Of a stretch of 64,000 nucleotides of DNA, positions 17,137 through 38,758 are shown piece after piece (position 1 is the stretch's first letter; each line of letters begins with the position of its first letter). The stretch comes from Cyanobacterium sp. uoEpiScrs1 (GTDB taxonomy: Bacteria > Cyanobacteriota > Cyanobacteriia > Cyanobacteriales > Microcystaceae): positions 1,661,376-1,725,375 of the forward strand of contig NZ_OX373462.1 of NCBI RefSeq assembly GCF_947331815.1, written 5' to 3'. Under the pieces are notes generated by a model, which ran no database searches, was not told the origin of the DNA, and was given only the letters and a program-made list of their open reading frames with translations. A program made the translations under genes and the position numbers.

Positions 17137-18345
17137 TTAAATTTCAGAAGGATTTACGGGAAAATAAAACTCCGTTCCCTGCTCAACAAGATGTTGATTG
17201 TTAGCTAAAATTTCTTTTTTGAAATTCCAGGCTAATACGTAGTAAATATCAGGAAGTTCTTTTAATTCCTTTTCTATAAGGATGGGAATGTGCATTCCAG
17301 GTGAGTAGAGTCCTCGTCGTAGCTCGTTCTTTTCGACCAAATAATCGAGATATTGGGTTCCAATTCCAAAATAATTCAACATAGTATTCCCTTTAACCGG
17401 TGCACCAAACCCCCAAATTTGCTTACCGTCTTTTTTCGCTTTTTCAAGATAGACTAAATTATCTACTTTCATTTGTTCGATACGCTCAGCGAAATCTAAA
17501 TAGGTAGATAATTCATTACTTTTTTCATCTACTTCTGCTTTTCTCATTTTAAGAAGACGATCACTGGGTTTTTTAGTCCCTTTATGAGTAACAAATCCGA
17601 TAATTGAACCTCCGTGAATAGGAGATAAATAGGCATCAAACATGGAGAGTCCATGACGGTTAAGTAATATTTCAATGGTTTTGAGATTATAGTAAAGTAA
17701 ATGTTCGTGATAAATCTGATCAAAAGCTAGATTATCAACAATACGTTTCATATAAAGAAACTGTACTATAAATACTCCATCTTTATGTAATGCTTCTCTA
17801 ATTCCTTCAGTAACTGAGTGGAGTTCCTCAAGATGAAAAAATACACCGGCTGCATTGATAACGTGAAACTTACGGTCAATATGTTTAACTACTGTTAAGT
17901 TAAAGAAATCATTGAGAGTAGGAATACCCACATCATTAGCAATTTTAGCTGTAGTTTTTGATGATTCCACTCCTAGAACATCATAACCAAGAGTTTGAAA
18001 ATGTTTTAATTGTGTTCCATCATTAGAGCCAATATCTAAGACAGATTTGTTAGGGGTTTTTTTGAAAAAACGATCATCAATTTCATAAGCAACTTGTTTA
18101 AAATGTTCACTTAAAGACTTTGTTACGCCAGATAAATAAGTATGATTTCCAAACATGATTTCTTTTTTAACAGTATAATCAAGTTGAACAGTTCCACAGT
18201 CGTGGCAGTAAAGCACTCGTAAGGGGTAGAAAGGTTCTGTTCCGACTTCTTCAGATTTTAAAAAATGATTACACCAAGGTTGAGTTCCTAAGTCAATCGC
18301 TAATTCTAAATTACTAGAGTCACAGACACGACAGATAGTATTCAA
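17137..18345 (-). CDS. sugar C-methyltransferase-like SAM methyltransferase
   Basis: The 402-residue protein has the three-part layout of NDP-sugar C-methyltransferases: an N-terminal zinc-binding part (CRVCDSS and YCHDCGTVQLDY), a central Rossmann SAM domain (VLDIGSNDGTQLKHF near residue 100), and a C-terminal Methyltransf_14-like domain (IWGFGAPVKGNTMLNYFG near residue 310). Relatives modify deoxysugars in polysaccharide and antibiotic pathways. It is the outermost gene of the glycan island on this side, which supports a role in making or tailoring a sugar nucleotide. The exact sugar is unknown. Confidence 0.88.
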   Translation of the reverse strand: MNTICRVCDSSNLELAIDLGTQPWCNHFLKSEEVGTEPFYPLRVLYCHDCGTVQLDYTVKKEIMFGNHTYLSGVTKSLSEHFKQVAYEIDDRFFKKTPNKSVLDIGSNDGTQLKHFQTLGYDVLGVESSKTTAKIANDVGIPTLNDFFNLTVVKHIDRKFHVINAAGVFFHLEELHSVTEGIREALHKDGVFIVQFLYMKRIVDNLAFDQIYHEHLLYYNLKTIEILLNRHGLSMFDAYLSPIHGGSIIGFVTHKGTKKPSDRLLKMRKAEVDEKSNELSTYLDFAERIEQMKVDNLVYLEKAKKDGKQIWGFGAPVKGNTMLNYFGIGTQYLDYLVEKNELRRGLYSPGMHIPILIEKELKELPDIYYVLAWNFKKEILANNQHLVEQGTEFYFPVNPSEI

Positions 18346-19152
18346 GTTGATTTTCTCTCCTAAGTTAATTTAGTAAACTATGATAGTTCATCTTAAGAAC
18401 TGATAATTAATTTAATCGATAACCAAATTTATTATTTTTGTAGATTTATTTTGTTCATTTTTACTGACTATCATCTATCTATACAAGAGAACTGTAAAGA
18501 GCTTCCTCCTAGCTAAATATTTTCATCTGTTTTCTAGTTTTGAATAATTGAGAAAAATATTGTTTCTAGTTAGGGGAGATAAGGGTATCAATAGGTCTTA
18601 AGCTAAGATTTTAACTTGATTGTCAGTCGCTAATAAATAGACTCCTAACATATATTGTTCGTTCCAATACTAGTTTTTAAACTTATCAGGATAACCATAA
18701 GGAGACATAATATCATAGATTTTAATAACAAGATCATACTTTAGCATAAGGACAACGTTTGTTGTAAATACAATAGCATTAAAGATCAATGATAAAAAAA
18801 TATGTTTATTCCAATTTTAAAAAATACATAAATTCCATATTTATAATTATCTAGCTAACTGCAAATAATTATAAATATCCACTCAGAATAGTTTTCAAAA
18901 TTCGTTTATTAAGTTTTTAAATTGTATTAATTAATAATAAAAACGAGTAGTGTTAGTGCTGATAAATTAATTTAAATATAAAGTAATTAATTATAGAAGT
19001 TGGGCTTTAATTGATAACATGACTCAACAATCTAATATCTACAAAACTGAATATAGTACAAAGTGTAGTTTTTAAGGTATTCTGATTCAGAATAATAATA
19101 GTTAAAACGGTGTATAATCTACTAGGGGTATAAATAATTTATAAATTATACT
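18346..19152. other. spacer with a gene remnant
   Basis: Mostly AT-rich spacer without an intact frame. It contains the remnant at 18602-18765 described separately. Confidence 0.5.
18602..18765 (-). pseudogene. remnant, possibly FemAB/GNAT-like
   Basis: One minus-strand frame reads IKIYDIMSPYGYPDKF, meets a TAG, then continues YWNEQYMLGVYLLATDNQ. The SPYGYP stretch recalls FemAB-type transferases common in polysaccharide clusters. Only about 54 codons are readable, so the family call is tentative. Confidence 0.3.
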
Positions 19153-21078
19153 CTAATATGTTGATGTAATTTTGTCTAGAGAATTATAAAAATCACCAAA
19201 AAATTTTTTTAATACTTGAGGATCTTTACTGCTTATGTAAGGAACCTTAATTATGGCAGTTTTTTCACGATTAATATCTAAGTATTTTTCATATTCTTCT
19301 TCATTAACTTTTTTCATAGTTACTGTTTTTTCCGCAGATGATAAGACTATTTTATTATTTCGATCATAATGTTTAACTTGATATCCTTCAAGCTCAAGAT
19401 AAAAAGTAGTAAATGTCCAAATCCATACTTCTTTAGCAAAATTATCAGATTTATCTGAATAAATTACAGTAACATTTTTGTCTATTTCTTGGATAATCTG
19501 TGCCATTTTACGAGACAGCTTAATAGGTATATGATGACTATTAAGCTGTGCTTTTCTTACTTCATTATATCCTTGTAAGTATCCTCCAGGTACTCTAGTT
19601 CCATCATGAGTATATATATAGTTTGGATTAGCTGTAATTTCTATAAAAGGAATTCTAGGAACCCATTGTATAGCGACACTTTGCAGAAAAAAACTTAGAA
19701 TTATAAAACCAAAAACTAAAGATCTAAATTTATTTTGATCCAGCCTAAATTTTATTTTTAAAGTAATTACAGCACATAAAAAAGGCAAAAAAATAATTCC
19801 AGGCATCAAATATTTAGGACTAGTCAAAGTTGGTAAAGGAGACAATAATGGCAAAATGCATAAAATAAGTAAAATTAGTCTATAGTCTTTATTCTTTGCC
19901 TTTGTTAGTATAAAACAAATTGAGCTTATTATTAAAATAATCCAGATTACTAAATTAGTAATACTAAATAAGTTAACTAATGATTTTTGAATTGTCCAAG
20001 TATTAACTCCTTCATGATGACTAGTAGCAATATAAATAATTTTATCTAAGTTAAAAATATCAGTAACTAGGAAGACTAGCAATAAACTAAAACTAGTTAA
20101 AATATAAATAAAATAAACTTTTAATCTTTGTTCTAATTTCTGTCCTAGAGACTTGTCAAATAACATTAAATACCACAATAGTGGTAGAGAAAGTAAAAAA
20201 TCAATTCTAAAAAATATTGAAAAAACTGAGGTTATACCAATTGTAAAATAGCGAAAATTATTCCATATCTTTTTTGTTTTAATAGGATTATCTGTCCAAA
20301 ATAAAAGCAAAATAGTTATAGACATAGGAAACATGGCAAAAACAGTTGAATTATAATATAAACTACAAAATAAAATTTCTGGAAAAATAATTAAAAAGCA
20401 AAAACATAAAACTAAATTTAGATTTTTCTTGGCAAAAATATAGATAGCTATCAATAAAATAGAAATATTCGCTGCACCAATTATTTGAGGAATTAAAAAA
20501 AGATGTTTAGGATTATTTAGCCAAGAATTAAGCCAGAGATTGAATTGATAAGTTAAAGGTTGCCAATAATAACGATAAACTAAATCTTTACCCTTGTGAG
20601 AAAAATTTATAATCCCATCAAGCTGATCAATGTCATCTCCCTCCCATCCGACGCGATCACCAAAAAATAAAAAGAACAGCAAAATTGTAATATAAAAAAT
20701 AATAATTCCTAAAAAAGGATAAATTTTTGAAAATAATTTTTTATCTATTATAAAAATTGTAGAAAAATAAGATACAAAAAATATTTTTTTTATATATTGA
20801 AAGCTCTGGACTACAAATAAGCTGATATAATACCAACTTCCAGTCAACAAAAGGAATCGTATTGTTCTTAAAAGAGAGGGGTGAATGTAATTCAGCTGTC
20901 CAATTATACTTAATATTAGACTTAAGGAAAGACAACTAAAACTAATAAGAAATAAATTATCTCTTCTTAGTTTTAAAAATAAATGAATGCCATGGAAAAT
21001 AGAATGACCTTTATATATTAGAATAGTAAAAACTAATACTAGTATTCCAAGAATTAAACTTGCTATGGGAATTAGCAT
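19153..21078 (-). CDS. integral membrane glycosyltransferase-like protein (GT-C type)
   Basis: The 641-residue protein has at least ten hydrophobic helices over residues 1-470 and a soluble C-terminal domain of about 170 residues. An acidic loop after the fourth or fifth helix (WEGDDIDQLDG near residue 150) followed by YYWQPLTYQFN is reminiscent of GT-C enzymes that take sugars from polyprenyl-phosphate donors. The first 70 residues (MLIPIASLILGILVLVFTIL) resemble the start of the 611-residue protein at 32.7-34.5 kb, so the two are paralogues. It lies 42 bases after the FAD oxidoreductase on the same strand. Very rich in Ile, Leu, Phe and Lys. Acceptor unknown. Confidence 0.72.
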   Translation of the reverse strand: MLIPIASLILGILVLVFTILIYKGHSIFHGIHLFLKLRRDNLFLISFSCLSLSLILSIIGQLNYIHPSLLRTIRFLLLTGSWYYISLFVVQSFQYIKKIFFVSYFSTIFIIDKKLFSKIYPFLGIIIFYITILLFFLFFGDRVGWEGDDIDQLDGIINFSHKGKDLVYRYYWQPLTYQFNLWLNSWLNNPKHLFLIPQIIGAANISILLIAIYIFAKKNLNLVLCFCFLIIFPEILFCSLYYNSTVFAMFPMSITILLLFWTDNPIKTKKIWNNFRYFTIGITSVFSIFFRIDFLLSLPLLWYLMLFDKSLGQKLEQRLKVYFIYILTSFSLLLVFLVTDIFNLDKIIYIATSHHEGVNTWTIQKSLVNLFSITNLVIWIILIISSICFILTKAKNKDYRLILLILCILPLLSPLPTLTSPKYLMPGIIFLPFLCAVITLKIKFRLDQNKFRSLVFGFIILSFFLQSVAIQWVPRIPFIEITANPNYIYTHDGTRVPGGYLQGYNEVRKAQLNSHHIPIKLSRKMAQIIQEIDKNVTVIYSDKSDNFAKEVWIWTFTTFYLELEGYQVKHYDRNNKIVLSSAEKTVTMKKVNEEEYEKYLDINREKTAIIKVPYISSKDPQVLKKFFGDFYNSLDKITSTY

Positions 21079-21120
21079 AATATATAGAAAAATTAATAAA
21101 AGTTGTCAGTAGCTAATGAC

Positions 21121-22503
21121 CTAATTACCTAATTTAGTTAATTTTATTTGATTGTCAACAAAATTACCTATTTTTCGTCCTTCACGAATTGCATAATTAG
21201 TCCCCCTATCTTCGGGATAAATTTGGGACATTGTACAAATATAGAAATTATTCAATGGAGTTGTTGTCTCAGGAATTAGTTGACTATAGTTATTTAAAAC
21301 AATTGGTTGTGAGTACCGTGCTTTCCATAAATGATAATCAACAATCCAGTCACGATTAAATTCAGGAAACATTTTTATTAAATAAGGAATTGAGTAATCC
21401 AAAGCTTCTTCCTTACTTCTTTGATAAAGATCTTCTGTTTCTAATAGATATTTAGACAAGTAGATAATATGTCGTCCACCATAAATTTTCTCAGATTCAA
21501 AGTTAGTATGTTCAATTACTCCTACAAAAGGAAAATTAGGGTCATTAACATTAAGCCAATAGGTTTTAGATAAACTTCGATTTAATTCTAAGACCAAACA
21601 AACATTGGCTAAGTATTTAATTTGTCGAAGTCGCTCGACATATTCAGCATTAACGTGAGGAGCCATCAGATCAGCAATAATAGGTAAAGCAGGAGTTGCA
21701 ATTACTGCATCAGCATTAACACGTCCTTGTGAGGTTTCAATAGCTATTACGTGGTTATCTTCTACTATTAATTCTTTCACAATTACATTAGTTTTTATTT
21801 CACCACCACTGATATCAATTTTAGTCTTTAAACATTCAGCTAAAGCTGCAAATCCTCCACGATAATAAGCCAACATTTCCTCCCCATTTTTATTACGACT
21901 TCCTCCTCTCAACTTAACTTTATTCCAAAACCAAACAGCAGATATACTTTCGGCAAATATGCCAAATTTTCCTCTTAATAAAGGTTCCCAAACCACCTGA
22001 TAAACTTGTCTTCCACAAACTTTTGATAACCATTCTTTAGCATAAATTGATTCTAATTTTTTCCAATTTTTAATACGGCGAACCCAGAGAACAAAAAGTC
22101 CTAAACGAATCCTGTTTAATAAGTGTAAAGGCTTAAAATTTAATAAATCAAAGGGTGAACTAAGTTTAAAAAAATTCTTGGAATAATAAACTCCTGTACG
22201 AGTTGGTCTATAGGTAACTTGATCTTCAACATTTAGTTCTTTAACTAATTCCATGATATATTTATCATTGGTAAACCAATGGTGGTAGAATTTCTCTAAT
22301 TTTTCTCCGTTAACATTAAAACTACCTGCTAATCCGCCTACCTCTTCTTCTTTTTCTAAAATAGTTACCCTATATCCTTGACGAGTTAATTGGTAAGCGG
22401 CAGTTAATCCAGTAAATCCTCCACCAATAATAACAATGTGAGGAGCAATTTTATTACGATTTTTTGAAAAATGATGATGATCAATAGATGAGTTTTTTAA
22501 CAT
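21121..22503 (-). CDS. FAD/NAD(P)-binding oxidoreductase, amine-oxidase/PPO-like
   Basis: The 460-residue protein opens with a dinucleotide-binding fold (IVIIGGGFTGLTAAYQLTRQ, then VTILEKEEEVGGLAGSF) typical of the flavin amine oxidase, protoporphyrinogen oxidase and UDP-galactopyranose mutase-like group. A conserved C-terminal FAD contact is seen in IYPEDRGTNYAIREGRKIG. It is placed between a GT2 sugar synthase and a membrane glycosyltransferase, and relatives occur in polysaccharide clusters. A role in sugar or lipid-carrier modification is therefore more likely than one in haem synthesis. The substrate is not known. Frame intact. Confidence 0.8.
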   Translation of the reverse strand: MLKNSSIDHHHFSKNRNKIAPHIVIIGGGFTGLTAAYQLTRQGYRVTILEKEEEVGGLAGSFNVNGEKLEKFYHHWFTNDKYIMELVKELNVEDQVTYRPTRTGVYYSKNFFKLSSPFDLLNFKPLHLLNRIRLGLFVLWVRRIKNWKKLESIYAKEWLSKVCGRQVYQVVWEPLLRGKFGIFAESISAVWFWNKVKLRGGSRNKNGEEMLAYYRGGFAALAECLKTKIDISGGEIKTNVIVKELIVEDNHVIAIETSQGRVNADAVIATPALPIIADLMAPHVNAEYVERLRQIKYLANVCLVLELNRSLSKTYWLNVNDPNFPFVGVIEHTNFESEKIYGGRHIIYLSKYLLETEDLYQRSKEEALDYSIPYLIKMFPEFNRDWIVDYHLWKARYSQPIVLNNYSQLIPETTTPLNNFYICTMSQIYPEDRGTNYAIREGRKIGNFVDNQIKLTKLGN

Positions 22504-22763: not shown

Positions 22764-23696
22764 TCATTTTTTATCAAAACCCAATCGTTCTCGAATTAAA
22801 TATAAAGGACGTTGTTTATTTTCTCGATAAATACGTCCAGTATATTCACCAATCACTCCTAAAAAAACTAGTTGAATTCCTCCAATAAATAACACAGAAA
22901 TAAAAAGTAATGTCCACCCTGGCACCCAAATTGAAGTAAACAAACGGAGAACTAAAGCATAGATAATACCAATTAAAGAGAATCCGAAGGTAAAAATACC
23001 AATCCAAATAGCCATTCTTAACGGAATTAATGAAAAAGAAAGAATACCATCGGCAGCAAAACGAAGCATTTTCCATAAAGAATACTTACTTACACCTGCA
23101 AGTCGAGGAGATCTTTGGTAGGGAATAGCAATTTGTCGAAAACCAACCCAACTAACCATTCCCCTCAAAAAGCGATCACGTTCAGGCATGATTTTCAAAG
23201 CTTCAACTACTTGACGGTCCATTAAGCGGAAATCTCCAGTATCAAGGGGAATTTGAACATCAGATAAGCAATTAATTAACCGGTAAAAAACTTTTGCAGT
23301 CCAACGTTTAAAAGCGGTTTCTCCTGTCCTCTCTGTTCGAACTCCATAGGCAACATGATACCCTTGACTCCATTGGTAGACCATTTCTTTAATTACTTCA
23401 GGAGGATCTTGTAAATCCGCATCGATTAAAACAATAGCATCTCCAGCTGCATAGTCTAAACCTGCAGTTACAGCCATTTGGTGCCCAAAATTGCGGGATA
23501 ATAAAATAGCATGAACTCTTGGATCCGCTTGTTGTAATTGGCGTAGCAAATGGGGAGTTTGATCATAGCTACCATCATCAACGTAAATTAGTTCAAATTG
23601 AGGAGTGAGATTTTCTATAACATTTACTAAGCGATGATTAGTTTCGTTGATAACTTCTTCTTCGTTGTAGCAGGGAATAATTACTGAAATAAACAA
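22764..23696 (-). CDS. GT2 polyprenyl-phosphate hexosyltransferase (DPM1/GtrB type)
   Basis: The 310-residue enzyme has a GT-A domain (SVIIPCYNEEEVINETNHRL at the start, the DDGS at residues 41-44, and DADLQDPPE near residue 93) and two C-terminal membrane helices (about residues 230-255 and 266-290). This is the build of GtrB/DPM1-like enzymes. They move a hexose from UDP- or GDP-sugar to undecaprenyl or dolichyl phosphate. In this island it would supply the lipid-linked sugar for the GT-C-like membrane proteins on both sides. It is the first gene of the minus-strand block and is divergent from the plus-strand operon at 24.0 kb. Confidence 0.9.
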   Translation of the reverse strand: MFISVIIPCYNEEEVINETNHRLVNVIENLTPQFELIYVDDGSYDQTPHLLRQLQQADPRVHAILLSRNFGHQMAVTAGLDYAAGDAIVLIDADLQDPPEVIKEMVYQWSQGYHVAYGVRTERTGETAFKRWTAKVFYRLINCLSDVQIPLDTGDFRLMDRQVVEALKIMPERDRFLRGMVSWVGFRQIAIPYQRSPRLAGVSKYSLWKMLRFAADGILSFSLIPLRMAIWIGIFTFGFSLIGIIYALVLRLFTSIWVPGWTLLFISVLFIGGIQLVFLGVIGEYTGRIYRENKQRPLYLIRERLGFDKK

Positions 23697-24018: not shown

Positions 24019-25815
24019 ATGAATTTAAAAAAAATAAACTTATATGCTTTGCCAAATAGATTAATTTTTACGGTATTTATATTAGTATATTTTATATTAG
24101 GAATTTACTTAATTAATCAAACTTCTATTACTTCTGACGAGTCTGCTTATATTGGAGCCGCTTATTCTTATACTCAAGGACTGGGGTTGAACCAGGAACA
24201 TCCTCTCTTTTTTAAGTTAGTTAATTCTCTAATTATTAACCTTTTTTTTTCTGATTATCAGATAGTAGTTCCTCCTGTAAATATTATCAGTGGCGAAGAA
24301 AATAGAGAGGTGCGTCTAGCCGCTTTTAATCTTGGTTATAGTTTTTTACTGGAACATCCAGAAAATTTCAAAAAAATAGTTTTTATCTTAAGATATTGTT
24401 ATCTATTTATCAATAGTATATTTTTAATTTGGATATATTTTTTTACTTTTATATTTCCACAGATACCTTTTAAACTCTCTATATGTCTAGAAATATTGTA
24501 TGTATTTTCTCCTAGTTTTTATAGCCATAATTTTTTAATATCTTTTGATGTTCCTGTTAGTATTTATGCTTTATTATCTATCTGGACAGTTATTATTATA
24601 ATTCATAAATCAGAATTATTTAAAATGACTGAGCTAATAATTTGCTTCTTTATTCTGAATCTTGTTTTTTTTCTTGCAATTAATGCTAAATTTAGTAATC
24701 TTATTTTGACTCCTATAATTCTATCTGCCTATTTAATTAATCTAATTTATTTAGCAAGAAAAAATCTTAAAATTTTAGCAATTAAATTCGGTATTTTAGG
24801 CTTTGTTAGTTTGTTGATACAACCGATATTAATTGTTTTGATGTATGGCTATGCTTTTCGCAATTTACCAAATCAATCAATTATCGATAATCTGCTACGT
24901 TATATACAGGGAATACAAATGAACTTAAGTACAGTAGGAGGAATTCGTAAACCTTTTTGGGACAAAAATTTTGTATCTATAACTTCCTTTGAATATCTAA
25001 ACAAAATATTTTGGTTCAAAGAAAATCCTGCTCTTTTTGTGCTTATTATATTTGTCATTATTATGATTGTTTATCAACTGATCATAAAGTATCGTCATAT
25101 TCCACGTATTTATCAAAAATTAGTAAATACAAAAAAATATATCGTTCGTCTATCTTTTTTTGTATTATGTATCTCTTATCCGTTAACTTATTTTCTTTTA
25201 ATCTATAAAAGTCGTTTTATTATTGGCTATCGATATTTTTATCCTTTGATTATTTTTATTTATTCTGGTATTGCCTATCTTACAATTTTTTTTAATAAAA
25301 AATGGCAACAGTATATTTTAATAGGTAGTTTTAGTTTGTATATATATTTTGGATTATTAGGAATTCCTCAATCTTTGAGTTATGTTAATCCTCTATGGAC
25401 CCTAGAAAAATGGCGCTTAACAGATGATTCAACTATTAACTGGGGACAAGAAACTCAACATGCTGTTGAATATTTACTGAATAATCATCTTTTACCAGAA
25501 AAAAATGTTGATGCTATTGTTCATAAGACTTTTGGTGTTAACATCAACTTTGTCCAATATTTATATATATTAAGCCAGCAAAAAAAATATACAATTGACA
25601 TTCAATCCTATCATAGTTATGATAATTTCAATCCAGAAACTACAAACATTACTGAATTAAACGCAAAGTATTTATTAATTGATAGTACTGTCAAACAACA
25701 AATTGTTTCCCAATCTTTTAATAATTATATAGCGACTAATAACCGGAATTTTTTAGATAATCACGTCCCTATTTACTCACGAAATGACATAATTTTTATT
25801 TACCAACTTAGATAG
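24019..25815 (+). CDS. GT-C-like membrane glycosyltransferase (GT39/PMT-type)
   Basis: The 598-residue protein has about ten or eleven hydrophobic helices. The first extracytoplasmic loop carries SDESAYIGAAYSYTQG and EHPLFFKLVNSL, the acidic pair and downstream EHP expected of the GT39/ArnT group that uses polyprenyl-phosphate sugars. The C-terminal 150 residues are soluble. It is the first gene of a four-gene plus-strand operon; only 3 bases separate it from the next start. Codon use is unusually AT-rich even for this window. The sugar and acceptor are unknown. Confidence 0.75.
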   Translation: MNLKKINLYALPNRLIFTVFILVYFILGIYLINQTSITSDESAYIGAAYSYTQGLGLNQEHPLFFKLVNSLIINLFFSDYQIVVPPVNIISGEENREVRLAAFNLGYSFLLEHPENFKKIVFILRYCYLFINSIFLIWIYFFTFIFPQIPFKLSICLEILYVFSPSFYSHNFLISFDVPVSIYALLSIWTVIIIIHKSELFKMTELIICFFILNLVFFLAINAKFSNLILTPIILSAYLINLIYLARKNLKILAIKFGILGFVSLLIQPILIVLMYGYAFRNLPNQSIIDNLLRYIQGIQMNLSTVGGIRKPFWDKNFVSITSFEYLNKIFWFKENPALFVLIIFVIIMIVYQLIIKYRHIPRIYQKLVNTKKYIVRLSFFVLCISYPLTYFLLIYKSRFIIGYRYFYPLIIFIYSGIAYLTIFFNKKWQQYILIGSFSLYIYFGLLGIPQSLSYVNPLWTLEKWRLTDDSTINWGQETQHAVEYLLNNHLLPEKNVDAIVHKTFGVNINFVQYLYILSQQKKYTIDIQSYHSYDNFNPETTNITELNAKYLLIDSTVKQQIVSQSFNNYIATNNRNFLDNHVPIYSRNDIIFIYQLR

Positions 25816-25818
25816 CAA

Positions 25819-28044: not shown

Positions 28045-28776
28045 ATGGGTGAGTGTCTGTCAAATAATCGCTATCAGTATGTAGGGTCAGAACTGGAAAT
28101 TGCCCGCGAAGCAAAAAACTGGAAAACTTACTTTTGTAATCTAATTGAGCAGTATCTAGGCAACGAGGTTTTAGAAGTGGGTGCTGGAATGGGAGGGACA
28201 ACTAAAGTTCTTTGTAAGACTGACCATAAACACTGGATTTGTTTAGAGCCAGATCCTCAATTAGCATCCGTAATTCAAGGTTTAATTTCTCGAGGAGAAT
28301 TGCCAAATTTTTGTTTAGTCAAAAATGGAACTTTAATTGATTTAAAAGATTCAGATCAATTTGACTCTCTAATTTATATAGACGTTTTAGAGCATATTGA
28401 AGATGACAAAAATGAAGTTTATTTAGCGACTAATTATCTAAAAACAGGAGGATATTTAATTATTCTTTGTCCGGCTCATCAATGGCTTTTTACTCCTTTT
28501 GATCTAGCCCTTGGACATTATCGTCGTTATGATAAACAAACCTTGTTATCAATAATGCCTGATAATTTAGACTGTCAAAAACTAAACTATTTAGATTCTG
28601 TCGGAGTTTTAGCTTCTTTAGGGAATCGTTTACTTTTGAAAAGTTCTAGTCCAACCCCCAAACAAATTAAATTTTGGGATACTTTGATGGTGCCATTATC
28701 AAAAAAGATAGATCCTTTGATTAGCTATTCTTTAGGTAAATCAATTCTAGGGATTTGGAAAAAGGTTAATAATTAG
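28045..28776 (+). CDS. class I SAM-dependent methyltransferase
   Basis: The 243-residue protein has motif I as VLEVGAGMGGTTKVL (about residues 39-53), an acidic residue after beta-2 (ICLEPDPQL), and the motif IV region SLIYIDVLEHIEDD near residue 112. It resembles Methyltransf_23/UbiE-like enzymes found in polysaccharide clusters. It sits 21 bases after one PTPS-related gene and 12 bases before its paralogue, so it is clearly part of that operon. The acceptor could be a sugar or lipid-linked intermediate. The start ATG at 28045 lies just after the previous stop. Confidence 0.85.
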   Translation: MGECLSNNRYQYVGSELEIAREAKNWKTYFCNLIEQYLGNEVLEVGAGMGGTTKVLCKTDHKHWICLEPDPQLASVIQGLISRGELPNFCLVKNGTLIDLKDSDQFDSLIYIDVLEHIEDDKNEVYLATNYLKTGGYLIILCPAHQWLFTPFDLALGHYRRYDKQTLLSIMPDNLDCQKLNYLDSVGVLASLGNRLLLKSSSPTPKQIKFWDTLMVPLSKKIDPLISYSLGKSILGIWKKVNN

Positions 28777-30981: not shown

Positions 30982-32550
30982 TCAATCTTTAATTAATTTA
31001 ACTAATCGGTAATATTGTTCACCATTAATTGTCTTGAACGTCTTAATATCCTGCCAATGATATCCTTCTTTGTCTAAAACATTTTGATCACGATAAAAAT
31101 GCAATAAATAAAGACAATTATTGTTTAAATTATGCTTAATTTTTGGTAAGTTTCCTTGATTATAAGGTTCAAAATCTATGATTTTCCATCGTTTCATATC
31201 TAGTCTATCAGCAGTAACGTCAATATTAAGTTTTTGATATTCTGCTGCTGGCATTTTTGTATAAAATGGAATCAATATATAAACATACTTACTCTCAATA
31301 TTATCACTAATAAGTATACAATCAGTTTTACTATTATCTGCCTCAGAAATAACCTCCTGAAAAGTTGGTAACCAAGCATCAGACTTTAACTTAGGATAGT
31401 CAACAAAATAATGTTTAGTAAATATAGTGAAATTAGCGAAAATAATCAATAAACTTGTCCATCTTAATATAGGCTTGAACGTACCATTTAACTCATCTAA
31501 CAAAAAGACCATTCCATAGCCAGATATTATTGCAAAGAGAGGTGCCCCGACACAAGTTCTAACAGCACTATACGGACTAACTAATGCTGCTGGAATAGGA
31601 TATAAAAATAACCATAGAATAAGTATTGGTCTATAGTTAATTTGATTTCTAATTAATCCTACTACTCCTAAGATCAAAGTCACTATTTCAAATAAATATA
31701 ACTCTCCCATGTTATTAATAGTGTGTCTAGGAATAGTATCTCCTTTAAAAAATAAATAGTTAGGACTAAAATAGGAAAAGTATTGACCAACAATTTGAGG
31801 AATATTGTTTAAAATCCCCACTTCGTTAGCTCTAGCCATTCCTTGAGGTGAAAGTTGATATATAAATTGAGGAATAAATAAAATAGCAAAAAGTATCAAT
31901 GCAAGAATCGTTTGATTTGTATGTTTAATGAAGTATTGTCTATAAACGATTACTGAGCCGATCATAAAAAGAGGAACAAATACCCTGGCGGAGTAAAAAG
32001 TATAGATGCTGATTGCAAATAATAAACCTGATACAGAAATTAATTTAGGGGTTTTTAGACTTTTCAAAAAAATCAGTAACGTAATACAAAATAATAAAGG
32101 AAATAAGATAGCTCTAAAAGTAATCCTACTAAATTGAATATGCCAAGGAGAAATCGCTAAAAATAAAGCAGAAAATAAGGCAATACGTTGAGAAAAGATT
32201 TCTTTAGTTAAATAGTATAAAACGAAAACAGTCAAAGTTCCGATAACAGCCGAAGTTATTCTGGACCCAAATATATTAAGTCCAAAAATTTTAATAAAAG
32301 GGATTATAAGATATATATATAATCCTTCACGATAATCGTTAGCTGACCTAAAATATGCTGGGAGAAATTCTCCGTACTGATCTCTTAAGGTGTTAATTAT
32401 AGAATAGGCATCATAGGCATTAGAGGCCTCATCAGGAAAAAATCCATTGGGAATACTTCCCAAAAATACTACTCTCAATAAGAATCCTAAAATAATAATT
32501 CCCAAGAGGTAAAAAATACTGAGATTTTTAATCTTAGTATATTTAAACAT
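30982..32550 (-). CDS. GT39-family membrane glycosyltransferase
   Basis: The 522-residue protein has about eleven helices. The first loop carries GFFPDEASNAYDAYS and then SANDYREGLYIYLIIPF, matching the PMT/ArnT-like GT39 family that transfers sugar from a polyprenyl-phosphate carrier on the outer side of the membrane. The C-terminal 130 residues are soluble. It is the last gene of the second minus-strand block, 157 bases after the 611-residue membrane protein. Donor supply by the GT2 enzyme at 22.8-23.7 kb is a reasonable inference. Intact. Confidence 0.85.
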   Translation of the reverse strand: MFKYTKIKNLSIFYLLGIIILGFLLRVVFLGSIPNGFFPDEASNAYDAYSIINTLRDQYGEFLPAYFRSANDYREGLYIYLIIPFIKIFGLNIFGSRITSAVIGTLTVFVLYYLTKEIFSQRIALFSALFLAISPWHIQFSRITFRAILFPLLFCITLLIFLKSLKTPKLISVSGLLFAISIYTFYSARVFVPLFMIGSVIVYRQYFIKHTNQTILALILFAILFIPQFIYQLSPQGMARANEVGILNNIPQIVGQYFSYFSPNYLFFKGDTIPRHTINNMGELYLFEIVTLILGVVGLIRNQINYRPILILWLFLYPIPAALVSPYSAVRTCVGAPLFAIISGYGMVFLLDELNGTFKPILRWTSLLIIFANFTIFTKHYFVDYPKLKSDAWLPTFQEVISEADNSKTDCILISDNIESKYVYILIPFYTKMPAAEYQKLNIDVTADRLDMKRWKIIDFEPYNQGNLPKIKHNLNNNCLYLLHFYRDQNVLDKEGYHWQDIKTFKTINGEQYYRLVKLIKD

Positions 32551-32707
32551 ATTAAAAATTAAGCTCCAGAATACATACTACATACTTATATTTTAATAAC
32601 CTAATTTATATTAAATCCCATCTAATAATTTACTTATCTTTATAAGCTATATGGATAAAGTTTTTATCTATATAAACAACTAGGCGAAATAATGTAATCA
32701 ATAGCAG

Positions 32708-34543
32708 TTATCGAACGATTCTTTTCCCTTTACATTTCTCTTCTATATACTCTGGTGACATATCAAATTCTGCCTTAATTGAATAATTAGAGTAAGGGTG
32801 GAAATAAGAATTATAAAGAAAAGAATGGGGAACTTTTGCTACTAGACAGATCTGCTCCCCATCTTCAAAACTTTTTAGTAGATCTTGATTAATAATATCA
32901 GTTCTTTGAACCTGATCATAAAATGATGAAAATTCTGGCATTGTAAAAAAGTATCGAGTTTTAGTAACAAAAATTATCATAAAACCAGCAGCAATCAAAG
33001 CTAAATTTTTAGGATTAATCCATGGTATTTTTGGAGAATGACTTTCTGCCAAATGGCAAATCAGATAACAATTTAAGGAAACAAAAACAATTATCCAGTA
33101 CATATAATACCGAAGTTCGTAAGACTGAGGCATAATTGATGTAAGTAGGGTCATAACAACCATCAATGCAGTAGCCACTTTTGACTCAATATTGTTACCT
33201 TTCCAAGAAAGATAGATGAATAATAATATGTTAAAAACTACATATCCACCAAAATATCCCCCCATTCCAAATCTTTCTTCATTCCAGGAAATAAAGTCCA
33301 TTCCTAGAGTCCATTGCCAGGGTCTTCTTGAATCAAAAGCATCAATTTCTAGAACTGACTTTGCCCAACGAAAAGTAGGAGGAAGTTTTTTAATATTTTC
33401 ATGCATAAAGTCTGGTGCCGCTTCATTGTGGTTAAGAACCACTCCAGCAATTTCCACTTTAACGGGATAAAATGGATTTTGATACAAAACTAAATTTTTA
33501 ATCGGTGTAGCAAAAATTATTAGACCAGCAACAAAGCTAATTAATAATGGTTTTGTTAAACCGATTATCCTATGTTTTCTTTGGGTATTATTCTTCCAAA
33601 ATTGAATTAGGACTTTAGCTAAAGTGAAACAGAGTATTATAAAAGTAACAGGAATAAGTTGAAACTTTATATTTGCTGCTAAAGTGGCAGACAAGAATAT
33701 AACCAATAAGTTTTTAAAGTTAATATTAATTCTATTCACATAGAAAAGATAAGTTGTCAAGATAAGAATTGAAACGGCAACATTTCCAGGTAGATCAATA
33801 TAACTTCTAGCTGCATGCATATGAATCATAGGAACTGCTAAAAGAGCAATTGTTCCTAAATAGAAAGGAATTTTTAAATAAAAAATTAGATAAACGATGA
33901 AACCTATCAAGCTGACATAACACAATAAGTTAGTAGCTTCTGGTCTTTGGAAAATAAACCAAAAGAAACCTTGTAGAAAGTTAGCTAATAAAGGAAATCC
34001 TAGAAAACGGTGTTCTGTGTTGTATTCAAAAGCATATTGCTCTACTGGAATAATGCCCCAAATTCTAGCTGCAAAGGGGATGTGGTACATAAAGGCATCG
34101 CCACCATAATTAGCATCGAAGAAACTAATTAAAAATATAGAAAATAAGATCAAACTTGAAACAATTGTCAGAAGGATCTTGACATTAAAATATTTTAAAA
34201 ATGTTGTGGCTGCATTAATAATTTTATCTGATCGATTATATTGGTTAAATACTTTAGAATCCTTAATATTTTCTAGAAAACTTAAACCAATAAAACCTAA
34301 CCCCAATCCCCCTAAGCAAATCCTCATTATTCTGAGAATCGAAGCATCAGCATAATTTAAGTAACCAGCAATTCCTAAGATTAAAGCTAAGGAAACTAAA
34401 CTAATACCTCCGGCAAAACGTGGCTCATTCTTTAACTTCAATAGCCAGGAGATACTTTGAGGGATAGGAAATCCTAAATAAACTAGTACAGTTATGCTCA
34501 ACAAAGCAATACCTAAGATAAGGCTCAATAATGGGACTAGCAT
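32708..34543 (-). CDS. integral membrane glycosyltransferase-like protein (GT-C type)
   Basis: The 611-residue protein has about twelve helices and a short soluble tail. An extracytoplasmic loop carries ANYGGDAFMYHIPFAARIW near residue 143, the acidic-plus-His pattern seen in GT-C enzymes that handle lipid-linked sugars. Its N-terminal 75 residues (MLVPLLSLILGIALLSITVL) match the 641-residue protein at 19.2-21.1 kb, so they form a paralogous pair at two places in the island. It follows the FkbM gene by 46 bases on the same strand. Confidence 0.72.
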   Translation of the reverse strand: MLVPLLSLILGIALLSITVLVYLGFPIPQSISWLLKLKNEPRFAGGISLVSLALILGIAGYLNYADASILRIMRICLGGLGLGFIGLSFLENIKDSKVFNQYNRSDKIINAATTFLKYFNVKILLTIVSSLILFSIFLISFFDANYGGDAFMYHIPFAARIWGIIPVEQYAFEYNTEHRFLGFPLLANFLQGFFWFIFQRPEATNLLCYVSLIGFIVYLIFYLKIPFYLGTIALLAVPMIHMHAARSYIDLPGNVAVSILILTTYLFYVNRININFKNLLVIFLSATLAANIKFQLIPVTFIILCFTLAKVLIQFWKNNTQRKHRIIGLTKPLLISFVAGLIIFATPIKNLVLYQNPFYPVKVEIAGVVLNHNEAAPDFMHENIKKLPPTFRWAKSVLEIDAFDSRRPWQWTLGMDFISWNEERFGMGGYFGGYVVFNILLFIYLSWKGNNIESKVATALMVVMTLLTSIMPQSYELRYYMYWIIVFVSLNCYLICHLAESHSPKIPWINPKNLALIAAGFMIIFVTKTRYFFTMPEFSSFYDQVQRTDIINQDLLKSFEDGEQICLVAKVPHSFLYNSYFHPYSNYSIKAEFDMSPEYIEEKCKGKRIVR

Positions 34544-34589
34544 AATTTTAAATTTTAAAGTAATTCCTGAAAAAACTTGACTATATTTT

Positions 34590-35753
34590 TTATATATAAA
34601 GGTTGGTTGATTGATGGTAAAAATTAGTTACTTTTCTAATTTTGGCTCCTTGCACCGACAGAGTGTGGTCTTTTGTCCCATTAAGAAATTCAAAATAAAA
34701 ATTAACTTTTGAAGTTTCGGACAAATGTATTACCCAGTCACGATAACTAGAAGCTAGTAAATTGCTATAAGCATGATAACGAAAAATAGTCTTTTTCCCT
34801 ACTCTAACACCACAGGTTAGGTCATTATCTTTACCCTGAGCCACAAAATCAATATCAATCAGATAACGTCCTTTATCTAGTATCAAAGGTGTTTTTAGAT
34901 AAATTGAGCCGCCAGTTGTGGATTCAAAATCTGTTGCTTCTAAGAAAGCATATTGCTCAAAATTAAAGGGGGGATTATAAACTACTTCAGACAACCTATC
35001 TTTATGAATATAAAGGTTATTCCTAATTCCCACCCCTTTGGGATAGTCTTGTGGACTCTCAATGATTTGATAGGTGTTTAAATCAATAGAAATGTAACCA
35101 GCTTCTTTCAAAAAATTAAGACAGTTAGTATCCTCTGGTTGAGTTTCTAAAATAAGATGAGGTTTAGCTAATTTTATAGTTTTGTTCATTCCTTTTATTG
35201 CATCAAATTCAGCTCCCTCAATATCCATTTTTACTAGTTCAGGAACTAGCTTAGTGTGTTCCACAAAATCATCTAAGGCAATAGTTGAAACCTGATAAGT
35301 AGCAGACTCATCTTGTTTATCTGTATAGATACTATCGTTAAGATGACTACCTAAATAAATGGGAACAGTCCCATAGGATTTAGAATAAACTGCAGTGTGA
35401 AAAAGTTGTACATTACTACAGCCACTCAAAACTATGTTACGTTGACATTTATCAACAATTCGAGGACTAGCTTCAAAAGAACACACCACTCCCTTTGGTC
35501 CCACCATACGAGACATAATAGTGGTTAACCCCCCAAAATTAGCTCCTACATCAAACACTACATGTCCAGGACGACATAGGTCTCGTAATGCTAGTTGGAC
35601 AGGCGGTTCCCAGAAGTTCTCTTTATACCAAGGAGCAACACCATAGAGTCTGACCTCTTCTAATTTTTGATTAACTCCCAATTGTTGATCAATTTCTGGA
35701 GCTAATGCTCTACTTAGACGAACTTTTAACCAGTCTTTAAATTGATTAATCAT
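34590..35753 (-). CDS. FkbM-family methyltransferase with extra C-terminal domain
   Basis: The 387-residue protein has a SAM domain of the FkbM family, seen in VFDVGANFGGLTTIMSRMVG near residue 70 and VKMDIEGAEFDAIKGMNK near residue 174. About 130 more residues (from 258 on) form a beta-rich region of unknown type. FkbM-type enzymes O-methylate sugars and related groups. The ATG overlaps the stop of the preceding two-domain glycosyltransferase by one base, so the two are translationally coupled and likely work on the same glycan, perhaps as a chain-capping step. That last point is inference. Confidence 0.88.
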   Translation of the reverse strand: MINQFKDWLKVRLSRALAPEIDQQLGVNQKLEEVRLYGVAPWYKENFWEPPVQLALRDLCRPGHVVFDVGANFGGLTTIMSRMVGPKGVVCSFEASPRIVDKCQRNIVLSGCSNVQLFHTAVYSKSYGTVPIYLGSHLNDSIYTDKQDESATYQVSTIALDDFVEHTKLVPELVKMDIEGAEFDAIKGMNKTIKLAKPHLILETQPEDTNCLNFLKEAGYISIDLNTYQIIESPQDYPKGVGIRNNLYIHKDRLSEVVYNPPFNFEQYAFLEATDFESTTGGSIYLKTPLILDKGRYLIDIDFVAQGKDNDLTCGVRVGKKTIFRYHAYSNLLASSYRDWVIHLSETSKVNFYFEFLNGTKDHTLSVQGAKIRKVTNFYHQSTNLYI

Positions 35754-38700
35754 TAACTTTTTTCTACCTCAGTGAACCAAAGAAAAGCGTGTTGTTCATG
35801 ACGATTGTCATTGAAGATTTTATAGTTTGGCTGTAATCCAAAACTTTTATCTGAATTCCAATATTTTAGATGTTCTTGCTCAACTTTATGAGCAATATTT
35901 CTAGTTTGTAACATACTCCCTAGAGGAGAAAGATGAGAAAGTTTAGGCATCCAATCTAACTCTCGATATGCATTAAGTAAAGTTTTTATTCCAGGTGAAT
36001 ATTTGAGAGCTTGAGATTCTGGAGCAATCTCTTTTAGATATAAACTTAAGTTGTAAGCATACTCTAAATCGGTACTGGTATGACGACAGTAAGATTTGCG
36101 ATAACCTAAGCATAGATGAAGTAATTGCTCTATTTCCTGAGGTTTTCGATTAACAAAAGCATAGCGTACACCCGCTAAGGTTCGATGAATATACCAGGCT
36201 CGCAAATCTTCAATTTCTGCTTGAGGACTTTGAGTAGTTCGTTCATCAGGATAGTTCCAAAAAACTCCTAAAGTTCGATCAATGACTTTGCTTTTGATAA
36301 AGGGCAAAACTCTACTCTTAAACTCTGTATCTCCTGCTCCTCGAAATGTTCCATCATAGTATCCAAAACGATCATGAATTGAACGACGATATAATGCCCC
36401 TACCCAAGATAAATAACAAGTTTCTAGATAAACTAAATCTTGTTTATATTTACTTCGATGATAGGGCATTATATCCTCAATCCAACTGCCTTGTTTATCC
36501 ACATTTGTAACTAGACTGTTACCAATTACCCAGTCAAGTTTAGGATCTTTATCTAGTTCTTCTGCTAGAACTTCTAAACACTCAGGAAGAATGGTTTCAT
36601 CTACTCCTAAAAAAGACAAATAAGGAGCTCTAGAAAGAGATATGCCACGATTCCAAGCGGACTGGATAGTTTCTCGTTTGTGCGATCTTACATAAATAAT
36701 TGGTAGATTAAGTTTAGGTACTAACTGTTGAAAAATCGCGTATTCATCCCCTGGAGAGCCACTATCCACTAGAATAACTTCCCCACATCCTGATTGTATC
36801 AAAGTCTGATGATGTAAGGTTTTCAGGAATAATGGTAGTTTTTCTGCCGCATTATAGAGAGAAACAATAACACTTACACGATAGTTAGACTTTTCTCGAC
36901 GATCATCAATAATTTCATAATTACCGTCAGGATTATTGTGTTTATTGTCGTTAAAAGCCTCCTCGATTAGAGTTTTACACCGACTATCTCGTTCAGCTAA
37001 GTTGCCATACATTGCTTGTAAAACTTGTGCTTCACGAGTTAACCCTTTATTTTCTAATGTTTGTAGGACAAAGGGGAGATCGCCAAAGTTATCGCTATCT
37101 AATAAACGCATTCCCCGAACTTTATAAGTAGCAGCAACAAAGTCATTACCCCGCAATTCTTCAAGTCTAGCAATTTCTCTCCACAAACGCACTCTATCAA
37201 TACGATAGCCATTCTCTAATCGAGAGCGCCAATTTTGAATATCTGCTTCAAAAGCTGATCCTAATTTCCAGCATTCTTTAACTTTATTAGCCAAATCTTT
37301 CTGGGTTAATTCTGATGTATTAAATAGGTGTTTGTAACGTCTGGTTAATTTAGAAGCTTTTAATACTTGAGCGTTACTTGTTTCCTCTAACGGTTTTCTT
37401 AGTTGTTCTTTTACCTCTCCAATAGTTTGTTTAAGTTGCTTATAGGCAGGTTTAATTTTAGACTTAACCTTAGATTTTGTCACTTTAATAATTGAAAGAT
37501 TGGAGAAGCTAAAACTAGATTGACCTGACTCCCAATAATCAATAAGTTTAGAATACCATTGGTCTAATTCATCTCCAATTTGTACATCAGCTACAGAAGA
37601 TTGATTATAAATTTCTTCTAGGGTAGGATCATTGATTTCTAAATTAGTATTGAAAATCGTGTCTACTAAGTTTTGGCGGTATTCTTCATAGTTTTCTAAT
37701 ACCTGAGTAATTGCGGGCAGACTTGAATAAATATCGTTAATGTCAATGATTATAAAAGGTATTTTGGGAAACTGTTCTTTTAAGAAGTGACAGACTCCGG
37801 CTCCATTACCTACTACTGTTGGGCAACCAGAAAATAAAGATTCTAAAGCGACTAAATTAAAAGTATCATATCTTGACGGTACAAAAGTAATAGATTTACT
37901 TGCAAATAATTCTAGCAATCCCCCCTTGCTAACTGGAGGACTAATACAGAGATCCTTAAGTCGGTTTTTCAACATCTTTTCAAGATAAAATTGAGAAGAT
38001 ATTGTATTGTTGTAGTTATAACTATGAGGTCCAATGATTTGAGCTTTAGTATAGCTAGATCGGGGTAACCACCATACTAAATCAATAAAAATATCGGGTC
38101 CTTTTCTCTTTTCTGTTCGTCCAATAAAATTTAAGTTTGGGGCAGTTTCTGATGTTAAACATTGGGTGGGCTTAGGAAGATCAAAAAAGTGGAGAGGATT
38201 ATAATAATGTGATGGTAGTTCGGAAATTTCTCTCCATTCATCTAGATAACTTTTACTAATACCATAGCGAATATCTACAGCTTTGTACTGCATTACTTCT
38301 TGAATATTTAGGGGTATATTATCTCTTCCAAAATCAAACCAATCTAACCGTAAGGTCTTAGATATTTTTCCATGCATTGATAGAGCAATACTTTTGAAAT
38401 TGACTTTATAACGATTTAGTGCTGGTCGTAAAAAAATCCCCCATTGTTCATAATCTGGGACGTCAACAATATCAAATTGTTGGCCAGCAATAGAAGCAGC
38501 AATATTGCTAGCCATAACACAAGATCTTTCAACCCATTTAGGAGGAGTTACTTCAAAAAAATTTTTAAAGTCAGTAACTAGAAATTTCTCCTGATACTCA
38601 AAAACGTTAGCATTATGCGGACGATCAGTATTTAAAGGTTCTTTTGCAATAAGATAATAAAATTCAATCTGAGGATTTTTTCTAATGATACTTTTGTAAA

Positions 38701-38758
38701 AGGTTTGTCCACCTCCTACTTTACTGAATAGGTCAAAATCTGCAATCAAAACTTTCAT
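35753..38758 (-). CDS. two-domain glycosyltransferase (GT4 + GT2)
   Basis: The 1001-residue protein joins two enzymes. Residues about 1-390 form a GT4 (GT-B) domain with NFIGRTEKRKGPDIFIDLVW and the donor-binding PSRYDTFNLVALESLFSGCP. Residues about 630-870 form a GT2 (GT-A) domain with VSVIVSLYNAAEKLPLFLKT and VILVDSGSPGDE, followed by SFLGVDETILPECLEVLAEE. A linker of about 240 residues rich in charged helices lies between. No membrane helix, so it acts in the cytosol, probably on a growing chain. Its stop overlaps the FkbM start by one base. It is the first intact gene of the block. Confidence 0.88.
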   Translation of the reverse strand: MKVLIADFDLFSKVGGGQTFYKSIIRKNPQIEFYYLIAKEPLNTDRPHNANVFEYQEKFLVTDFKNFFEVTPPKWVERSCVMASNIAASIAGQQFDIVDVPDYEQWGIFLRPALNRYKVNFKSIALSMHGKISKTLRLDWFDFGRDNIPLNIQEVMQYKAVDIRYGISKSYLDEWREISELPSHYYNPLHFFDLPKPTQCLTSETAPNLNFIGRTEKRKGPDIFIDLVWWLPRSSYTKAQIIGPHSYNYNNTISSQFYLEKMLKNRLKDLCISPPVSKGGLLELFASKSITFVPSRYDTFNLVALESLFSGCPTVVGNGAGVCHFLKEQFPKIPFIIIDINDIYSSLPAITQVLENYEEYRQNLVDTIFNTNLEINDPTLEEIYNQSSVADVQIGDELDQWYSKLIDYWESGQSSFSFSNLSIIKVTKSKVKSKIKPAYKQLKQTIGEVKEQLRKPLEETSNAQVLKASKLTRRYKHLFNTSELTQKDLANKVKECWKLGSAFEADIQNWRSRLENGYRIDRVRLWREIARLEELRGNDFVAATYKVRGMRLLDSDNFGDLPFVLQTLENKGLTREAQVLQAMYGNLAERDSRCKTLIEEAFNDNKHNNPDGNYEIIDDRREKSNYRVSVIVSLYNAAEKLPLFLKTLHHQTLIQSGCGEVILVDSGSPGDEYAIFQQLVPKLNLPIIYVRSHKRETIQSAWNRGISLSRAPYLSFLGVDETILPECLEVLAEELDKDPKLDWVIGNSLVTNVDKQGSWIEDIMPYHRSKYKQDLVYLETCYLSWVGALYRRSIHDRFGYYDGTFRGAGDTEFKSRVLPFIKSKVIDRTLGVFWNYPDERTTQSPQAEIEDLRAWYIHRTLAGVRYAFVNRKPQEIEQLLHLCLGYRKSYCRHTSTDLEYAYNLSLYLKEIAPESQALKYSPGIKTLLNAYRELDWMPKLSHLSPLGSMLQTRNIAHKVEQEHLKYWNSDKSFGLQPNYKIFNDNRHEQHAFLWFTEVEKS

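What the first reader, a model, noticed from the sequence alone, without database searches (positions are those of the whole stretch)
17137..38758. Retained envelope glycan island with six GT-C-like membrane proteins
One GT2 polyprenyl-phosphate sugar synthase is surrounded by six large integral membrane proteins of GT-C or GT-C-like type (19153, 24019, 25819, 28789, 30982, 32708), three methyltransferases, an FAD oxidoreductase and a two-domain GT4/GT2. Most reduced symbionts lose surface polysaccharide genes, yet here about 21 kb remains intact while neighbouring genes are gone. It may build a glycan needed at the symbiont-host membrane. I know of no described pathway with this set.
Basis: partly seen in the sequence, partly recalled or inferred. 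Interest (0 to 1): 0.65.

Follow-up and report, generated by a model that had tools for sequence, protein, structure and literature searches.

The report
Retained envelope glycan pathway in nitrogen-fixing endosymbionts
A 12-gene set of enzymes that probably builds and decorates a sugar chain on the cell envelope is kept intact by natural selection in the shrinking genomes of diatom endosymbionts, and part of it also in the nitrogen-fixing organelle UCYN-A; it was inherited from ancestors that lived before the symbiosis and has no known product.

Summary
Window 17137-38758 carries 12 intact genes: a GtrB-like lipid-sugar synthase (GT2), six large membrane proteins, three methyltransferases, an FAD enzyme and a GT4-GT2 protein. 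GT-C assignment is supported for four membrane proteins, weakly for 32708, not for 19153. Genome size (2.48 Mb) matches the endosymbiont of Epithemia pelagica. The same 12 genes, in order and open, lie in EtSB, EcSB and RgSB, with dN/dS 0.05-0.34 in every gene and pair, so 'only slow to decay' is refuted. Decay is visible beside them: a 13th cluster gene is a relic at 39212-41463 (broken in EtSB too, open in EcSB and RgSB), and a methyltransferase relic lies at 18604-18780. The symbiosis-specific reading is not supported: the genes occur in larger-genome relatives, often as two or three loci, within one cyanobacterial family. Two genomes that by size are UCYN-A, a separate lineage, keep seven of the 12 in two loci, also under purifying selection. 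Best reading: a clade-specific envelope glycosylation pathway of the three-component type (polyprenyl-phosphate sugar, flippase, GT-C), with many GT-Cs, kept even inside hosts. Sugars, acceptor and product are unknown.

The parts
17137..18345 (-). Cmt14: C-methyltransferase (Methyltransf_13 + Methyltransf_23 + Methyltransf_14), 402 aa
   Evidence: Pfam; orthologues 90-92% in three diatom endosymbionts and 82% in G013 (UCYN-A by size); dN/dS 0.08-0.12
18604..18780 (-). Relic of a methyltransferase gene (MT368; Methyltransf_24) that stands between GTC1 and Cmt14 in SU2 and G008
   Evidence: tblastn 56% over 59 aa with 1 stop; intact copies in SU2 and G008
19153..21078 (-). GTC1: 641 aa membrane protein, GT-C-like by topology only; N-terminal ~99 residues shared with GTC6
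   Evidence: no Pfam family
21121..22503 (-). FAD-dependent amino-oxidase-like enzyme (NCBIfam NF005560/PRK07233), 460 aa
   Evidence: (521 bits, cut-off 252)
22764..23696 (-). GT2: GtrB-like polyprenyl-phosphate sugar synthase, 310 aa
   Evidence: Pfam; closest solved protein Synechocystis GtrB sll0501, 317 bits, DADLQDPPE stretch identical
24019..25815 (+). GTC2: PMT/ArnT-like GT-C fold, 598 aa
   Evidence: AF2 and structure comparison; present in the same 11 of 29 relatives as GTC4
25819..28023 (+). GTC3: paralogue of GTC4, GT-C, 734 aa
   Evidence: 51% identity to GTC4; tree
28045..28776 (+). MT12: class I methyltransferase, 243 aa
   Evidence: Pfam; orthologues
28789..30915 (+). GTC4: GT-C with C-terminal beta-sandwich domain and last TM helix, 708 aa
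   Evidence: AF2 and structure comparison
30982..32550 (-). GTC5: PMT_2-family GT-C, 522 aa
   Evidence: Pfam; relatives
32708..34543 (-). GTC6: GT-C-like membrane protein, 611 aa
   Evidence: PMT_2 in 3 of 15 family members, not in this one; 26 of 50 family genomes
34590..35753 (-). FkbM-type methyltransferase with C-terminal extension, 387 aa
   Evidence: Pfam; relatives
35753..38758 (-). GT4-GT2 two-domain glycosyltransferase without TM segments, 1001 aa
   Evidence: Pfam; relatives
39212..41463 (-). Pseudogene of the 13th cluster gene, a ~1190 aa GT4-type glycosyltransferase (its C-terminal piece is the ORF 39206-39547)
   Evidence: six tblastn pieces, 8 stops in all, shifted frames, ~380 residues missing; open in EcSB and RgSB

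Best explanation
The island is a vertically inherited, clade-specific envelope glycosylation pathway that works like a multi-enzyme three-component system. Inferred steps: (1) the GtrB-like GT2 charges undecaprenyl phosphate with a hexose (glucose by analogy with Synechocystis GtrB); (2) the lipid-sugar is flipped, perhaps by the GtrA-domain protein encoded elsewhere; (3) the GT-C enzymes add sugars at the periplasmic face; (4) cytoplasmic GTs (GT4-GT2, the ~1190-aa GT where intact, and a WecG/GT26 encoded elsewhere) build the acceptor oligosaccharide; (5) the methyltransferases and the FAD enzyme modify sugars or cap chains; (6) a retained Wzy_C-type protein may ligate or polymerise the product. 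Shown: gene content, fold of two GT-Cs, homology of the donor synthase, synteny, purifying selection, retention in two endosymbiont lineages. Inferred: sugars, acceptor, order of steps, place in the envelope.
For: GT2 is a homologue over 305 residues of GtrB sll0501, which makes UndP-glucose (PMC4728340, passages). GT-C folds of GTC4 and GTC2 and PMT_2 in GTC5. The genes travel together across genomes: GTC2 and GTC4 in the same 11 of 29 relatives; GTC3/4 and GTC6 in 26 of 50 family genomes each, 25 shared, although unlinked in SU2 and both UCYN-A-sized genomes (Fisher p 8e-12 without correction for kinship). Purifying selection in 4 diatom endosymbionts and between the two UCYN-A-sized genomes (NG86 dN/dS 0.05-0.19 for nine genes; Era 0.11, EF-G 0.11). 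One GtrA-domain protein in 9 of 9 genomes searched; one intact WecG protein and two Wzy_C proteins in each of 5 endosymbionts. The GTC4 tree fits vertical descent.
Against: No flippase gene in the island, and the GtrA-domain protein elsewhere has its own GT2 part, so it may serve another route. SU2 has a second GtrB-like protein (50% identical to the GT2) near GTC6, so the donor for module C may be another one. Sugars and acceptor unknown. GTC1 not shown to be a GT-C, GTC6 only weakly. No expression or glycan data seen. G013 (UCYN-A by size) lacks GT4-GT2 at its locus and has neither GTC1 nor an orthologue of the FAD enzyme, so the 12-gene set is not one indispensable unit. Three of four g24 (Synechocystis-like) genomes in the phylum sample have GTC3/4 without GTC2. 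Two intact neighbours outside the island have similar dN/dS (MocA-like 0.17-0.36, helicase 0.11-0.25), so the island is constrained like other surviving genes, not more.
Confidence: 0.65

Rival explanations
1. Retention reflects importability: very hydrophobic proteins cannot be imported from the host, so their genes stay in the symbiont genome; the function is ordinary envelope upkeep.
For: Genes kept in the nitroplast and in spheroid bodies encode more hydrophobic proteins than those of free-living relatives (PMC11221429, abstract and passages). Six of the 12 proteins have 7-12 TM-like segments.
Against: Cmt14, FkbM, MT12, the FAD enzyme and GT4-GT2 have no TM-like segment and are just as intact. 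Other membrane glycan genes were lost: five Wzy_C genes in SU2, two in each of five endosymbionts.
Confidence: 0.2
2. The island is a passenger: a neutral or slowly decaying remnant of a free-living EPS or O-antigen locus.
For: Two cluster genes are relics; the ~1190-aa GT has dN/dS 0.32 in the one pair where it is open in both.
Against: dN/dS 0.05-0.34 for all 12 genes in all 6 pairs, dS 0.16-0.69, no internal stop; seven of the genes are also kept in two UCYN-A-sized genomes under purifying selection.
Confidence: 0.03
3. The GT-Cs are protein glycosyltransferases (PMT/STT3-like) that glycosylate outer-membrane or periplasmic proteins rather than a polysaccharide.
For: Best fold matches are STT3 for GTC4 and Pmt4 for GTC2; the GT2 also scores well against the PgfS model of a protein glycosylation system (295 bits, below its cut-off of 500; role of PgfS recalled).
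Against: GT-C folds are shared by protein, lipid and polysaccharide transferases; GTC4 has no WWD motif (sequence; motif recalled); GTC4 also aligns with the arabinan transferase AftD up to residue 699; the multi-domain GT4-GT2 protein and WecG suggest a lipid-linked oligosaccharide (inference).
Confidence: 0.2

Closest known systems
Three-component periplasmic glycosylation (GtrA-GtrB-Gtr; GT136 pentofuranose systems, PMC11127046, passages)
   Same: Polyprenyl-phosphate sugar synthase plus GT-C enzymes; loci with several candidate GT-Cs are mentioned there
   Different: Up to six GT-C-like proteins beside one GT2 and no flippase gene in the island; an FAD enzyme, three methyltransferases and a GT4-GT2 alongside; acceptor unknown
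Synechocystis GtrB (sll0501; PDB 5ekp)
   Same: Homologous over 305 residues, same DADLQDPPE stretch
   Different: Sugar specificity of the window GT2 untested
Mycobacterial AftD/Emb arabinan transferases
   Same: GTC4 aligns over residues 17-699 with AftD, Z 21.3, rmsd 4.2, 442 residues, so reaching the C-terminal domain and last helix
   Different: 10% identity; Foldseek TM-scores only 0.2-0.4; no arabinose donor pathway looked for; much shorter protein
Streptococcal Pgf glycosylation (PgfS)
   Same: GT2 scores 295 bits to the PgfS model
   Different: Below the curated cut-off (500); GT-C partners not compared

Membership tests
Three-component extracytoplasmic glycosylation system | Polyprenyl-phosphate sugar synthase | tested here: met
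   GT2 homologous over 305 residues to GtrB sll0501, E 1e-93; by homology only, activity not tested
Three-component extracytoplasmic glycosylation system | Flippase for the lipid-linked sugar | tested here: inconclusive
   None in the island; one GtrA-domain protein elsewhere in 9 of 9 genomes, link to this pathway unknown
Three-component extracytoplasmic glycosylation system | GT-C enzyme using the flipped donor | tested here: met
   GT-C fold for GTC4 and GTC2, PMT_2 for GTC5; donor use not tested
Three-component extracytoplasmic glycosylation system | Acceptor glycan modified in the periplasm | not testable with these tools
   no glycan data
Oligosaccharyltransferase STT3/PglB/AglB | GT-C fold | tested here: met
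   GTC4, Z 23.9, rmsd 4.3, 349 residues to 8agb_A
Oligosaccharyltransferase STT3/PglB/AglB | WWDYG motif (recalled) | tested here: not met
   no WW in the GTC4 sequence, read by eye
PMT/ArnT family | GT-C fold of PMT/ArnT type | tested here: met
   GTC2, Z 17.6 Pmt4, 12.1 ArnT; Foldseek best E only 1.8e-3, model pLDDT 71
PMT/ArnT family | Pfam PMT_2 match | tested here: inconclusive
   GTC5 met; GTC2 none in 15 members; GTC6 in 3 of 15 members
AftD/Emb arabinosyltransferases | Use of decaprenyl-phospho-arabinose | not tested
   no search for the donor pathway made

The most novel reading that the evidence does not exclude
A multi-GT-C assembly line fed by one UndP-sugar makes a hitherto unseen glycan that belongs to the minimal envelope of nitrogen-fixing organelles: kept independently in diatom diazoplasts and in the UCYN-A nitroplast because the symbiont-host interface (barrier, recognition or protein import) depends on it.
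Probability: 0.15. Interest if true: 0.8.

Novelty: new variant of a known kind. Interest (0 to 1): 0.5.

Why it matters
How the envelope of recent endosymbionts was transformed is called barely understood (PMC12176269, one section read), and a study of E. clementina states that pathways for polysaccharide synthesis other than glycogen were not detected in its diazoplast genome (PMC11070190, passage). Yet the EcSB genome holds this cluster with all 13 genes open. Two endosymbiont lineages keep a common set (Cmt14, GT2, GTC2, GTC4, GTC5, GTC6, FkbM) under purifying selection. This names a concrete, testable envelope pathway in an organelle in the making, and free-living relatives offer a place to test its function.

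Tried and rejected
Neutral decay: rejected by dN/dS. Symbiosis-specific novelty: rejected by presence in relatives with large genomes. Horizontal acquisition: not favoured; the GTC4 tree places the diatom endosymbionts with SU2 and G013/G400 with Crocosphaera, and GTC2 has no match in the plasmid collection. Anti-phage defence: no convincing PADLOC match in ten of the 12 proteins scanned; weak methyltransferase hits to mad2 and a desaturase-like hit of the FAD enzyme only. Promoter and terminator scans of 17000-36900 gave about what shuffles give (94 against 94.7; 12 against 8.6, sd 2.8). Profiles of GTC2, GTC3/4 and GTC6 found no solved structure by sequence. Profile comparisons of GTC5 with GTC6, GTC2, GTC1 and GTC3/4 gave nothing. 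A find in the EtSB/RgSB genome comparison (PMC5638926) for glycosyl-, polysaccharide, cell wall, glycan and outer-membrane terms gave none. Statistical caveats: co-occurrence tests ignore kinship; six endosymbiont genomes stand for about two lineages; in genus g1 7 of 7 and in g155 9 of 9 genomes have GTC3/4, so presence in the ancestors was expected and only retention informs. PMC12903740 raises the possibility that EpSB was acquired separately from the others, so pairs with EpSB may include time outside a host; among EtSB, EcSB and RgSB alone dN/dS is 0.07-0.34. YN00 failed for two UCYN-A genes. GTC1 and the FAD enzyme were sought in G013, not in G400. I made no search for lipid A genes or for an initiating glycosyltransferase.
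Full report
What the window is. It lies at 1661376-1725375 of a single-contig genome of 2,483,960 bases. The nearest large genome held, by GTC4 identity (83%), is 'Unicellular cyanobacterium SU2', 5.2 Mb; its way of life is not stated in the record title.

Check of the observation. Twelve ORFs fill 92% of 17137-38758, against 45% for ORFs of 100 aa or more in the rest of the window. I call the six membrane proteins GTC1 (19153), GTC2 (24019), GTC3 (25819), GTC4 (28789), GTC5 (30982) and GTC6 (32708). GTC5 matches PMT_2 above its cut-off. AlphaFold2 models of GTC4 (pLDDT 76) and GTC2 (pLDDT 71) have GT-C folds: GTC4 aligns with STT3 (Z 23.9, rmsd 4.3, 349 residues), AftD (Z 21.3, 442 residues, up to residue 699) and ArnT (Z 19.1); GTC2 with Pmt4 (Z 17.6, rmsd 4.2, 331 residues) and ArnT (Z 12.1). 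Foldseek alone was weaker: best E 4.7e-6 for GTC4 with TM-scores of 0.2-0.4 in its leading rows, and 1.8e-3 for GTC2. GTC3 is 51% identical to GTC4. GTC6 has weak PMT_2 support in 3 of 15 members, the window's own not among them. GTC1 has none; it shares a ~99-residue N-terminal membrane module with GTC6 (hhalign probability 98.9).

Selection. All 12 genes are open in EpSB, RgSB, EcSB and EtSB. Pairwise dN/dS over 12 genes and 6 pairs is 0.05-0.34 by NG86 and YN00, with dS 0.16-0.69, so sites are not saturated. GT2, Cmt14, FkbM and GT4-GT2 are the most constrained, GTC1 and GTC2 the least. Among EtSB, EcSB and RgSB alone the range is 0.07-0.34. Two intact genes outside the island, a MocA-like oxidoreductase (0.17-0.36) and a helicase (0.11-0.25), lie in the same range: the island is constrained like other surviving genes.

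Decay next door. A ~1190-aa GT4-type glycosyltransferase stands upstream of GT4-GT2 in SU2, G004, G006, G010, G014, G040, G100 and G404. In the window it is a relic at 39212-41463 in six pieces with 8 stops; in EtSB it is also broken; in EcSB and RgSB it is open over 1189 codons, with dN/dS 0.32 between these two. A methyltransferase that stands beside Cmt14 in SU2, G008 and G014 is a 59-residue relic at 18604-18780 in the window and is in pieces with stops in the other three endosymbionts. Loss is thus active within this very cluster, which makes the intactness of the other 12 genes meaningful.

Relatives with larger genomes. In SU2 the genes lie in three loci: GT2-FAD-GTC1-MT368-Cmt14; GTC2-GTC3-MT12-GTC4 with GTC5; and the ~1190-aa GT, GT4-GT2, FkbM, GTC6, with a second GtrB-like gene (50% identical to the GT2) nearby. 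In G014 they form one run like the endosymbionts' but without FAD, GTC1 and MT12; G010 also has one run, of fewer genes. Cyanothece BG0011 has Cmt14-GTC1-FAD-GT2-FkbM-like-GTC2-GTC4. GTC2 was found in 8 and GTC3/4 in 11 of 386 genomes drawn across the phylum, all in the window's own family; three of the four g24 genomes in that sample have GTC3/4 without GTC2. In 50 genomes of that family GTC3/4 occurs in 26 and GTC6 in 26, with 25 in common. These numbers ignore kinship: whole genera have or lack the pair.

UCYN-A. Two single-contig genomes of one genus (1,443,806 and 1,491,611 bp; by size UCYN-A) keep Cmt14-GT2-FkbM-like-GTC2-GTC4 followed by a WecG/GT26 gene, and at a second locus FkbM-GTC6-GTC5. 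All nine genes are open in both, with NG86 dN/dS 0.05-0.19; Era, EF-G and an 812-aa neighbour give 0.11, 0.11 and 0.03. UCYN-A1 and A2 are put at about 91 million years apart, with 873 of 887 shared genes under purifying selection (PMC4804200, passages), so this is ordinary for UCYN-A genes that survive; what counts is that they survive. G013 has no GTC1 and no orthologue of the FAD enzyme; neither genome has GT4-GT2 at the FkbM-GTC6 locus. The GTC4 tree places these two with Crocosphaera and the diatom endosymbionts with SU2, in line with separate acquisitions (PMC12903740, section 5 first part). Common to both lineages are Cmt14, GT2, GTC2, GTC4, GTC5, GTC6 and FkbM, seven of the 12.

Other glycan genes. 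WecG/GT26: four in SU2, one intact in each of five endosymbiont genomes searched, with broken second copies in RgSB, EtSB and EcSB. Wzy_C: 3-5 in four larger genomes (one of G014's three below the cut-off), two in each of five endosymbionts. One GtrA-domain protein in 9 of 9 genomes; in the own genome it is a 397-aa protein with a GT2 part 27% identical to the island's GT2. Fourteen core external-polysaccharide proteins are absent from rhopalodian endosymbionts (PMC12903740). So loss of surface-glycan genes is common here, and this pathway was largely spared.

How it most likely works. The GT2 is homologous to Synechocystis GtrB over 305 residues, which makes UndP-glucose (PMC4728340, passages). 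GT-C enzymes use such flipped donors at the periplasmic face; this scheme of synthase, flippase and GT-C is the three-component system described in PMC11127046 (passages), where loci with several candidate GT-Cs are noted and their complexity left open. Here one donor synthase, a flippase encoded elsewhere (inferred) and up to six GT-C-like proteins would elaborate a lipid-linked glycan started by GT4-GT2, the ~1190-aa GT and WecG, with methylation by Cmt14, MT12 and FkbM. The sugars, the acceptor (LPS, peptidoglycan-bound polysaccharide, protein) and the role of the FAD enzyme are not known. The protein-glycosylation alternative stays open.

Place among known things. It works like a three-component system and meets two of its features by homology and fold; the flippase is unproven and the acceptor untestable here, so I file it as a variant, not a proven member. 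My literature searches listed no paper that by title or abstract describes this gene set; they cover open-access papers only. Interest lies in the retention across two endosymbiont lineages rather than in new chemistry that can be shown now.

Noticed in passing
window 39212-41463: Relic of a ~1190-aa GT4-type glycosyltransferase, broken in EpSB and EtSB, open in EcSB and RgSB: a case of lineage-by-lineage loss inside one cluster.
   Followed up: yes
window 19153-21078 and 32708-34543: GTC1 and GTC6 share an N-terminal ~99-residue membrane module although the rest of the proteins is not detectably alike in the profile comparison.
   Followed up: partly
window 16925-17007: tRNA-Leu(CAA) lies directly at the left edge of the island; not examined in relatives.
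   Followed up: no
window 51253-52482: Intact acetate kinase gene in an endosymbiont group said to have lost carbon fixation (PMC12903740); may bear on its energy metabolism.
   Followed up: no
G000:C1:1111304-1111423: Four adjacent 30-base units elsewhere in the genome match one 30-base stretch of the FkbM gene at 90%, perhaps chance.
   Followed up: no
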